NCBI RefSeq assembly: GCF_002233675.1 | Contig: NZ_NMUQ01000001.1 | Span: 189,021 to 253,020, forward strand | Direction: 5' to 3' | Origin: Paenibacillus herberti | Lineage (GTDB): Bacteria > Bacillota > Bacilli > Paenibacillales > Paenibacillaceae | DNA: 64,000 bases | Part shown: piece after piece, positions 19,467 to 29,704 of the stretch | Layout: each line of letters starts with the position of its first letter | Position numbering within the stretch: position 1 is the stretch's first letter | Notes under the pieces: model-generated | The model's input: the letters and a program-made list of their open reading frames with translations, nothing else | The model's database searches: none | Told to the model about the DNA's origin: nothing | Made by a program: the position numbers and the translations under genes

Positions 19467-19592
19467 CAGAGGGCGCCGGGAACAGGGCCCAGGAGGATTT
19501 TTGTACCGAGAATATTGATTAAGTGGCTCATTAAGTATTGTCAATACCGAAAAAAGGGTATAGAGGTTATATCAACAAGCGTACTATATAAT

Positions 19593-19756
19593 GAGAACGC
19601 GCAAAGTTCTCGTCAACCTATGATGGGAAGCAAGGAAGAGAGCGCCGGCCAGCGCCCTCTCCTGCACAGTCTCACTGTAGGTGGAGCCCTCCATCTTAAT
19701 TAGGGCAGAGAGTAACCCGTCAGGCCTGTCAACCTGTGGCGGGTTACTTTTGTTTA
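19593..19756 (+). ncRNA. Candidate structured plus-strand RNA, possible antisense antitoxin
   Basis: The gap between rodA and spoIVFA has no convincing plus-strand gene but a series of hairpins: GAGAAC/GTTCTC at 19593-19611, a GAGAGCGC/GCGCCCTCTC stem at 19638-19661, ACAGT/ACTGT near 19666-19678, GCCCT/AGGGC near 19686-19706, and the terminator at 19711-19756. TATAAT lies at 19587-19592, but its -35 is poor. A start near 19599 would fall inside the first hairpin and give an RNA of about 158 nt, converging on the minus-strand toxin-like ORF. That geometry fits type I antitoxin RNAs, but promoter and expression are unproven. Confidence 0.4.
19711..19756 (+). terminator. Terminator in the rodA-spoIVFA gap
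   Basis: AGTAACCCG pairs exactly with CGGGTTACT across a 20-base loop, followed by TTTGTTT. It may end rodA transcription and/or the candidate small RNA. Confidence 0.8.
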
Positions 19757-19760
19757 TCGA

Positions 19761-19829
19761 TTAAGTCAGGGTCGCCAGCAGAAAACTACCGAATGCGATC
19801 CGTGACATGATCAATTGGAAAGTATCCAT
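19761..19829 (-). CDS. Very short hydrophobic peptide resembling BsrE/TxpA-type (Hol_Tox) type I toxin
   Basis: The 22-codon ORF on the minus strand encodes a peptide beginning MDTFQLIM and continuing IAFGSFLLATLT. From memory, B. subtilis BsrE begins MSTFQALM and continues AIGSFIIALLT, so spacing and most positions agree. Members of this family are membrane-acting toxins controlled by antisense RNA. The ribosome site GAAGGAGGG is excellent, 6 bases before ATG 19829; an in-frame ATG at 19835 abuts it and is less likely. The peptide stops right after the core hydrophobic stretch and lacks the charged tail of the model toxins, so it could be a minimal or decayed toxin. No strong minus-strand promoter was found. 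Confidence 0.5.
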   Translation of the reverse strand: MDTFQLIMSRIAFGSFLLATLT

Positions 19830-19833
19830 AGGC

Positions 19834-19854
19834 ATCCCTCCTTCCCAGAGGGAT
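19834..19854 (-). promoter_or_regulatory. Hairpin sequestering the toxin-like ribosome-binding site
   Basis: On the minus strand ATCCCTC and GAGGGAT form a 7-bp stem around a 7-base loop. The second arm and loop contain the GAAGGAGGG ribosome site of the 22-codon ORF, so initiation would be suppressed in the folded mRNA. Such sequestration is common in type I toxin messages. Confidence 0.55.
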
Positions 19855-19897
19855 TTCCACCACAAGTCCAGCAGTACTGGACAATTATTCCAACAAG

Positions 19898-19933
19898 ACC
19901 GAGCCTCCGTATACGGTGGGCTCTTTTTATTTT
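19898..19933 (+). terminator. Second plus-strand terminator before spoIVFA
   Basis: GAGCC-T-CCG and CGG-T-GGCTC form a stem with a TATA loop, followed by TTTTTATTTT. A plus-strand transcript ending here would lie antisense to the whole toxin-like ORF. Confidence 0.72.
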
Positions 19934-20009
19934 GCCCGAAAAAAGGGAGTCGAATGATAGAAATGGGGGCGAGTCGCAACTGCTAGAGTCCGACACAACT
20001 TCAACTGCC

Positions 20010-28417: not shown

Positions 28418-29704
28418 GTGAAACCAGTGAAAGTCGGCCTGCTTGGCCTTGGAACGGTAGGAACAGGTGTTGTGCGCATTGTAGAGGGGCATCAGGAGGA
28501 TCTGATGGGTCAGGTCGGATCGCCGATCGTCATCGAGAAGATACTGGTACAGAACGTTGAGAAGCTGCGGAATATTGATATCGACTCTTCGAAGCTTACG
28601 ACCGATCCATGGGAAATTATCCGTCATCCGGAAATTGACGTTATCGTTGAAGTTATGGGCGGCATCGAGACAACGAAGGAATATTTACTTGAGGCGCTCT
28701 CCCGCGGCAAACATGTCGTTACCGCTAACAAGGATCTGATGGCGCTGCATGGACGCGAGATTTTGGCCAAAGCGACCGAGAACCGTTGTGATGTTTTTTA
28801 TGAGGCGAGCGTAGCGGGCGGAATTCCGATTATCCGTACGCTGATCGAGGGTTTTTCCTCGGATCGCATCACTAAGATCATGGGCATCGTGAACGGCACG
28901 ACGAACTTTATTTTGACGAAGATGAGTCAGGAGGGAGCATCCTACGGCGATGTGCTCAAGGAAGCACAACAGCTCGGTTATGCTGAAGCTGACCCAACCT
29001 CCGATGTGGAAGGACTGGACGCCGCTCGCAAAATGACAATCCTCTCTCGTCTCGGTTTCCGTTCCGAGGTAGGACTGGAGGATGTCTCCGTTAAGGGGAT
29101 TTCCGGAGTGAGCAAAGAGGACATCGCCTATGCCAAGCGGCTCGGCTACGTGGTGAAGCTGCTCGGTATCGCCGAGCGCCAGGATGAATCCATCAGCGTC
29201 AGCGTGCAGCCGACGATGGTGAAGGCGACTCATCCGATTGCCTCGGTGAACGGCGTATTCAACGCGGTGTACGTGCACGGAGAAGCAGTCGGCGAAACGA
29301 TGTTCTATGGCGCTGGAGCCGGTGAGCTGCCGACGGCGACCTCAATCGTTGCGGACCTTGTCGCTGTTGTCAAAAACCTCAAGATTGGCGTCAATGGTCT
29401 GCATGGAGCGGGTGCTTATAAAGAGCGCGTGCTGAAAACTGACGAGCAGATCAACTCGAAATATTTCTTGCGCCTGCATGTAGCCGATCGCGCCGGGGTG
29501 CTTGCACGTATTACGCAAGTTTTTGCAGAGTATGAGGTAAGCCTCGAATCCGTCATCCAACAGCCGAATTCAGAGCTGCCGGAAGCCGAAATCATCGTGG
29601 TTACGCATAATGCAAGCAAGGCGGCGATGAACAAAGTGGTAGATGCGTTCCAGACGCTGGATGTCATCCAGAACGTCAAGAGCGTCTACCGGGTGGAAGG
29701 CTAA
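28418..29704 (+). CDS. hom: Homoserine dehydrogenase
   Basis: NAD(P)H-dependent reduction of aspartate semialdehyde to homoserine, the branch point to threonine and methionine. The Rossmann motif GLLGLGTVGTGVV is at the N-terminus, the substrate-binding GLDAARKMTILSRLGF and NGTTNFILTKM are central, and a C-terminal ACT domain (about 345-425) indicates feedback control. The frame opens at TTG 28394, but GTG 28418, 7 bases after GGGGATGAG, gives the normal start. The stop overlaps thrB (TAATG). Confidence 0.95.
   Translation: MKPVKVGLLGLGTVGTGVVRIVEGHQEDLMGQVGSPIVIEKILVQNVEKLRNIDIDSSKLTTDPWEIIRHPEIDVIVEVMGGIETTKEYLLEALSRGKHVVTANKDLMALHGREILAKATENRCDVFYEASVAGGIPIIRTLIEGFSSDRITKIMGIVNGTTNFILTKMSQEGASYGDVLKEAQQLGYAEADPTSDVEGLDAARKMTILSRLGFRSEVGLEDVSVKGISGVSKEDIAYAKRLGYVVKLLGIAERQDESISVSVQPTMVKATHPIASVNGVFNAVYVHGEAVGETMFYGAGAGELPTATSIVADLVAVVKNLKIGVNGLHGAGAYKERVLKTDEQINSKYFLRLHVADRAGVLARITQVFAEYEVSLESVIQQPNSELPEAEIIVVTHNASKAAMNKVVDAFQTLDVIQNVKSVYRVEG

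What the first reader, a model, noticed from the sequence alone, without database searches (positions are those of the whole stretch)
19761..19829. Unannotated BsrE/TxpA-like type I toxin ORF between rodA and spoIVFA
A 22-codon minus-strand ORF with a near-ideal ribosome site encodes a hydrophobic peptide whose MxTFQxxM...GSFxxAxLT layout agrees, from memory, with BsrE and related Hol_Tox peptides. Standard gene finders miss ORFs this short. It lacks the charged tail, so it may be a minimal toxin or a decaying one.
Basis: partly seen in the sequence, partly recalled or inferred. Interest (0 to 1): 0.75.

Follow-up and report, generated by a model that had tools for sequence, protein, structure and literature searches.

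The report
Decaying prophage-derived type I toxin locus
A tiny bacterial gene between a cell-shape gene and a sporulation gene looks like a worn-down copy of a small membrane toxin, normally held in check by an antisense RNA and often carried by phages; it is of a well-known kind, caught in the middle of decay.

Summary
The 22-codon minus-strand ORF is real and not a chance ORF. The 364 bp around it are 80% identical to an intact unit in a prophage of the same genome (E 1e-79), whose 28-aa peptide passes Pfam Hol_Tox (44.2 bits, cut-off 23.3). The window peptide does not pass (13.6 bits). It ends early through a one-base frame difference near its end; the sequence for the charged tail is still there in another frame. 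Arg10 and Thr20 occur in none of 18 full-length relatives (16 distinct). The rest of a BsrE-like type I toxin-antitoxin locus is recognisable: -10, ribosome site, folded mRNA of about 250 nt, candidate convergent antisense RNA. In the genus 5 of 8 genomes hold this unit or remains of it between rodA and spoIVFA: one intact (P. pasadenensis), one truncated (window), three relics. One sister species has a 40-kb prophage in the rodA 3' end and two keep integrase relics there. Verdict: a prophage-derived Hol_Tox locus in decay. Its antisense RNA might still act against the prophage toxin; that is untested.

The parts
19761..19829 (-). truncated toxin ORF, 22 codons, MDTFQLIMSRIAFGSFLLATLT
19835..19845 (-). 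ribosome-binding site GGAAGGAGGGA
   Evidence: sequence; AAAGGAGG or AAGGAGG-like site in the other aligned units
19884..19889 (-). candidate toxin -10 (AATAAT, preceded by TGG); TATAAT in the paralogue L005 and the orthologue L043
   Evidence: the consensus scan did not list it
19631..19882 (-). inferred toxin mRNA, about 250 nt, with 5'-3' closing helix and 3' stem-loop
   Evidence: ends inferred from motifs, no transcript data
19633..19663 (-). candidate toxin mRNA terminator stem-loop (weak U tail in the window copy)
   Evidence: not listed by the scan
19587..19592 (+). candidate antitoxin -10, TATAAT
   Evidence: a -10-like hexamer 13-44 nt beyond the toxin RNA end in 8 of 8 units, exact TATAAT in 5 of 8; at least 5 of 6 matches in 8 of 8 against 1.7 expected, exact in 5 of 8 against 0.18 expected; -35 poor (2 of 6 matches)
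19599..19755 (+). inferred antisense (antitoxin) RNA, about 157 nt, convergent with the toxin mRNA and complementary to it over 125 nt
   Evidence: ends inferred
19712..19755 (+). GTAACCC...GGGTTAC hairpin with T-rich tail: candidate antitoxin terminator; in intact copies it contains the toxin stop codon
   Evidence: helices 9 and 10: 98.6% and 97.5% of cells paired
19901..19933 (+). second hairpin plus T run upstream of the toxin promoter, pointing away from the toxin
   Evidence: sequence; also upstream of the toxin in L005, L044, L060
19954..19993 (+). frameshifted remnant of the start of a neighbouring prophage gene
   Evidence: 85% identity over 62 bp (window 19932-19993) to prophage locus L040, E 2e-14; for the open frame in L002

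Best explanation
The ORF is the toxin gene of a BsrE/BsrH-like (Hol_Tox) type I toxin-antitoxin locus that came from a prophage and is now decaying. Shown by sequence: homology, site, frame difference, shared anatomy, association of intact copies with prophages. Inferred: in intact copies a folded mRNA of about 250 nt makes a 28-aa membrane peptide, and a convergent antisense RNA pairs with its 3' half and promotes its decay, as described for txpA/RatA and bsrG/SR4 and, from recall, bsrE/SR5. In the window copy the peptide has lost its charged tail and carries an arginine in the membrane stretch, so it is most likely harmless or nearly so. The antisense half is still recognisable. The unit was probably left by, or recombined from, a prophage that used the rodA 3' end as attachment site.
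For: 80% DNA identity over 364 bp to the intact unit L002, which sits among virion and lysis genes in this genome. The intact orthologue lies at the same junction in G004, whose contig length (274,335) equals that of a Paenibacillus pasadenensis DSM 19293 record found with the same peptide. Relics at the same site in G001, G003, G007. In G001 an element of about 39.6 kb with a tyrosine integrase (PHROG integrase 6e-73) splits the junction, with a 145-bp rodA duplication at 95% identity (about 20.6 kb of the element read); it carries its own intact copy. Integrase relics beside rodA in G003 and G006. A piece of a prophage gene is still attached to the window unit. RNA structure: 91.5% of cells paired against 40-52% in slid controls.
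Against: The window peptide fails the Pfam cut-off (13.6 of 23.3 bits); NCBIfam lists nothing for it; Rfam gave 3 matches at E 6-9, all far under their gathering scores. pN/pS of the window copy against 6 relatives (0.25-0.55) overlaps that among intact copies (0-0.57), so relaxed selection is not shown. Covariation is modest: the score is reached by 16 of 500 shuffles, but pairs with changes on both sides (6) by 86 of 500, and the structure slid by +1 has 8 such pairs; the structure was derived from 7 of the 8 rows. No integrase relic beside rodA in the window genome. By eye the 3' part of the unit looks more like the G004 junction copy than the prophage copies, so vertical inheritance with later recombination is possible. 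No transcript data.
Confidence: 0.82

Rival explanations
1. Minimal toxin: the 22-aa peptide without the tail is still made and still toxic, and the antisense RNA still controls it.
For: Promoter-like motif, ribosome site, mRNA fold and antisense half are retained; pN/pS not raised; PMC6562991 (passages) notes truncated variants of other toxins (YonT, YoyJ), mainly with the membrane domain kept.
Against: Arg10 and Thr20 at positions that are hydrophobic (10) or leucine (20) in 18 of 18 full-length relatives, and mean hydropathy 1.61 against 1.88-2.44; the same unit has decayed at this site in three sister species.
Confidence: 0.12
2. Orphan antitoxin: the toxin half is dead, and the antisense RNA is kept because it silences the homologous toxin mRNA of the resident prophage (anti-addiction by RNA).
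For: Predicted duplex of the window antisense RNA with the prophage toxin mRNA -191 kcal/mol, against -281 with its own mRNA, -96 mean and -118 minimum for 100 shuffles, -95 and -91 for two other Hol_Tox loci of the genome. In G001 the junction keeps only the 3' and antisense part while the adjacent prophage has an intact toxin. The G003 and G007 junctions lost that part, and no intact toxin of this subtype was found in those two genomes.
Against: Four decayed junctions are too few. G007 keeps the antisense half at another broken copy (L014/L060) without any intact toxin of the subtype found. Similar pairing follows from shared descent alone. The prophage copy has its own candidate antisense RNA.
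Confidence: 0.1
3. Assembly or sequencing error: the gene is really intact.
For: The frame difference rests on one assembly; I saw no second strain of this species.
Against: Arg10, Thr20, Leu6 and the changed -10 do not depend on the frame difference.
Confidence: 0.06
4. Chance ORF in a spacer.
For: Short; Pfam score under cut-off.
Against: Homology at DNA and protein level.
Confidence: 0.01

Closest known systems
bsrE/SR5 (and bsrH) of Bacillus subtilis; BsrE on plasmid pBS72
   Same: Peptide of about 30 aa with a TFQ start and an ALLTY + charged tail in the closest intact relatives and in the pBS72 peptide; such systems are carried by prophages and plasmids (PMC6562991, passages). A convergent antisense RNA at the toxin mRNA 3' end is described there for txpA/RatA and bsrG/SR4; for bsrE/SR5 I recall it.
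   Different: The window copy stops after 22 residues, has Arg10 and Thr20, and lies at a chromosomal junction; no expression data. The pBS72 record holds 2 matching places, and its annotated gene starts 27 bp after the start I translated.
Pfam PF16935 Hol_Tox / 'putative holin-like toxin'
   Same: The intact paralogue passes (44.2 bits) and the G004 orthologue peptide is identical to it; 223 of 295 family genomes have a match over the cut-off, 2 of 14 control genomes.
   Different: The window peptide scores 13.6 bits, under the cut-off of 23.3.
NCBIfam NF052249 ComI (competence inhibitor)
   Same: The intact paralogue matches at E 3.4e-6 over residues 1-27.
   Different: 26.7 bits against a cut-off of 55; the window peptide is not listed.
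Prophage Hol_Tox genes, e.g. Paenibacillus phage Vegas VEGAS_33
   Same: 67.9% identity to the intact paralogue over 28 residues; an integrase gene lies close by, with four annotated genes between.
   Different: Another phage and setting; annotated as hypothetical protein.

Membership tests
Hol_Tox (PF16935) | score over the curated cut-off, 23.3 bits | tested here: not met
   window peptide 13.6 bits; its intact paralogue 44.2
Hol_Tox (PF16935) | common descent with family members | tested here: met
   80% DNA identity over 364 bp to L002; HMM without the window copy E 4e-8
BsrE-like type I toxin-antitoxin locus | short peptide with one membrane stretch | tested here: inconclusive
   17-residue mean hydropathy 1.61, lowest of the 19 compared, with a charged residue inside
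BsrE-like type I toxin-antitoxin locus | charged C-terminal tail (feature recalled; seen in the relatives) | tested here: not met
   absent from the window ORF, present in the intact relatives
BsrE-like type I toxin-antitoxin locus | antisense RNA gene converging on the toxin mRNA 3' end | tested here: inconclusive
   promoter-like -10 in 8 of 8 units, above shuffles, in a region chosen after looking and in related units; hairpin in 8 of 8; no transcript data
BsrE-like type I toxin-antitoxin locus | folded toxin mRNA with 5'-3' long-range pairing (feature recalled) | tested here: met
   by prediction only
BsrE-like type I toxin-antitoxin locus | toxicity on overexpression, rescue by antisense RNA | not testable with these tools
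   needs a bench test
Prophage remnant at the rodA 3' end | attachment duplication or integrase relic beside rodA | tested here: inconclusive
   duplication and integrase in G001, integrase relics in G003 and G006, none in the window genome

The most novel reading that the evidence does not exclude
The toxin half of this relic is dead, but its antisense RNA survives as a chromosomal, RNA-based anti-addiction gene that silences the homologous toxin of the genome's own prophage, so that the host could lose that prophage without being poisoned.
Probability: 0.1. Interest if true: 0.6.

Novelty: new member of a known kind. Interest (0 to 1): 0.3.

Why it matters
It gives a natural decay series of one type I toxin-antitoxin unit at one chromosomal site: intact, frameshifted, and several kinds of remnant in sister species, with intact copies on prophages. 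That makes it possible to ask which half of such a locus is lost first, and whether a left-over antisense RNA can protect a host from a prophage toxin. It also shows how a curated score cut-off can miss a decayed member whose DNA makes its origin plain.

Tried and rejected
NCBIfam and Rfam searches of the window peptide and region gave nothing useful. The promoter/terminator scan was not above chance by itself: 1 promoter-like and 1 terminator-like site, 0.6 and 0.7 expected. Direct tblastn of the 22-aa peptide in phages, limit E 10, found 4 records at E 4. pN/pS on 22 codons did not separate decay from constraint. L010 (window 29587-29634, 11.9 bits) seems to lie inside a coding frame of the other strand (my reading) and was taken as chance. 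L008 (14.8 bits) was printed and not pursued. The A3 model score of the window copy (55.5 bits) is circular, because the window copy is one of its four rows; I rely on the 20-row model. Paper searches 'Paenibacillus, rodA, prophage, attachment site' and 'type I toxin, Paenibacillus, antisense RNA' listed 2 papers each, none on this locus by title and abstract start; a search with six terms on degenerate or orphan antitoxins, at least five required, listed none. A ComI search listed 8 papers, none opened. PMC6070908 was seen in passages only and adds only that a P. larvae phage table lists a putative holin-like toxin.

Full report
Observation. The minus strand of 19761-19829 encodes MDTFQLIMSRIAFGSFLLATLT, with GGAAGGAGGGA just before the start codon. 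In the whole window 3 ATG-started ORFs of 20-60 codons have both a ribosome site and a 17-residue stretch of mean hydropathy 1.6 or more; 20 block-shuffled copies have 0.4 on average (the threshold was set after this peptide's 1.61 was known). The ORF lies between rodA (ends 19466) and spoIVFA (starts 20093); these names are a reading of the proteins, not an annotation.

Family. Pfam Hol_Tox matches the window peptide only weakly (13.6 bits, cut-off 23.3). In the same genome four other places pass the cut-off. One of them, L002/L005, is the closest: its 28-aa peptide scores 44.2 bits, and the DNA around it is 80% identical to the window over 364 bp, E 1e-79. An HMM from 20 relatives, window copy left out, finds the window peptide at E 4e-8 among 982 peptides. 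A peptide of plasmid pBS72, on which PMC6562991 places a BsrE (passages read), is 11 of 22 identical. So descent from a BsrE-like Hol_Tox gene is shown; membership by score is not.

What is broken. Against seven aligned copies (six intact, L060 broken) the window unit differs by one base in length near the end of the hydrophobic stretch, so the frame ends early and the sequence for the charged tail stands in another frame. Arg10 and Thr20 occur in none of the 18 full-length 28-aa relatives (16 distinct), where position 10 is M, L, I or V and position 20 is L; none of the 18 has a charged residue in positions 6-21. Two of the 20 relatives are longer and were left out of this count. The -10 reads AATAAT, against TATAAT in L005 and L043. 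Against decay, pN/pS of the window copy (0.25-0.55 against 6 relatives) is not clearly higher than among intact copies (0-0.57).

Anatomy. The minus-strand unit has a TGG-AATAAT motif, a ribosome site, and a predicted transcript of about 250 nt whose 5' leader pairs with its 3' part. In 8 units 91.5% of cells of a structure derived from 7 of them pair, against 40-52% when slid. The covariation score is reached by 16 of 500 shuffles; pairs with changes on both sides (6) by 86 of 500, and the +1 slide has 8, so covariation is weak support. On the plus strand a -10-like hexamer lies 13-44 nt outside the toxin RNA end in 8 of 8 units, exact TATAAT in 5 of 8 including the window. Shuffles give 1.7 units with at least 5 of 6 matches (8 observed) and 0.18 exact (5 observed); the region was chosen after looking and the units are related. 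The -35 is poor. The GTAACCC hairpin with a T-rich tail contains the toxin stop codon in intact copies. This predicts a 157-nt antisense RNA at 19599-19755 with 125 nt complementary to the toxin mRNA. PMC6562991 (passages) describes pairing at the 3' ends for txpA/RatA and bsrG/SR4, and RNase III cuts near the bsrE stop codon; that bsrE/SR5 overlaps in the same way I recall. All transcript ends here are inferred from motifs.

Where it came from. At the rodA-spoIVFA junction of the 8 genus genomes held: intact in G004, whose contig length equals that of the P. pasadenensis DSM 19293 record; truncated in the window genome; relics in G001 (3' and antisense part), G003 (decayed ORF and promoter side) and G007 (promoter side); nothing seen in G002, G005, G006. 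The 1.5 kb after rodA in 11 genomes outside the genus gave no HMM match (in 4 of these 11, L030, L031, L035 and L037, no spoIVFA was detected in the locus). In G001 the junction is split by an element of about 39.6 kb that has a tyrosine integrase next to rodA and ends with a 145-bp copy of the rodA 3' end, 95% identical (about 20.6 kb of it read). That element carries its own intact toxin unit near a 1478-aa phage gene; the prophage of the window genome has a 1482-aa gene of similar start at the same place. G003 and G006 keep integrase remnants beside rodA; the window genome has none. The window unit still carries a frameshifted start of the neighbouring prophage gene, 85% over 62 bp. I take this as a prophage-derived unit; whether excision left an end behind or recombination brought it I cannot tell.

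Distribution. Hol_Tox: 225 of 295 family genomes at E 0.001 (223 over the cut-off), 2 of 14 controls. DNA like the L005 unit: 60 of 394 family genomes at E 0.001. Of the 30 loci fetched there, from 30 of those 60 genomes, 7 showed no full-length ATG-started frame by eye (L111, L116, L121, L123, L124, L132, L135), so decay of such toxins seems common. Relatives of the intact paralogue are encoded in 65 of 50,697 phage records (E limit 0.01) and 439 of 72,556 plasmid records (E limit 0.1).

Orphan antitoxin idea. The window antisense RNA is predicted to pair with the prophage toxin mRNA at -191 kcal/mol (own mRNA -281; 100 shuffles mean -96, minimum -118; two other Hol_Tox loci -95 and -91). The G001 junction keeps only the 3' and antisense part beside a prophage with an intact toxin. 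The G003 and G007 junctions lost it, and no intact toxin of this subtype was found in those genomes. But G007 keeps the antisense half at another broken copy (L060). Four junctions prove nothing; I give this 0.1. Whether RNA antitoxins have been shown to act as anti-addiction genes I did not settle; one search and passages of PMC10305079 describe the effect for type II systems.

Verdict. Ordinary in kind: a decaying, prophage-derived member by descent of the BsrE/Hol_Tox type I toxin-antitoxin family. The interest lies in the decay series at one site and in the testable fate of the antisense RNA.

Noticed in passing
G001, L038 and L039 (contig C1 about 3536595-3576527): An element of about 39.6 kb is inserted in the 3' end of rodA with a 145-bp duplication; the rodA 3' end looks like a recurrent attachment site in this genus (integrase relics in G003 and G006).
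   Followed up: partly
L003 (own genome C1:45292-45346): A remnant of the same hairpin region, 84% identical over about 55 bp, without a toxin frame, beside a 160-aa gene that looks like an ImmA/IrrE-type protein (my reading).
   Followed up: no
L014/L041 (G007 C1:1177550-1177835): A further broken copy of the toxin unit away from rodA, with promoter motif and antisense half retained.
   Followed up: partly
L005 against L043: The first 66 bp of the toxin ORF are identical between the window genome's prophage and the G004 junction, although the window's own junction copy has diverged: a sign of recent transfer or conversion.
   Followed up: no
L007 (own genome C7:1040966-1041046): A copy of a second Hol_Tox subtype in this genome that seems, by eye, to have lost its start.
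   Followed up: no
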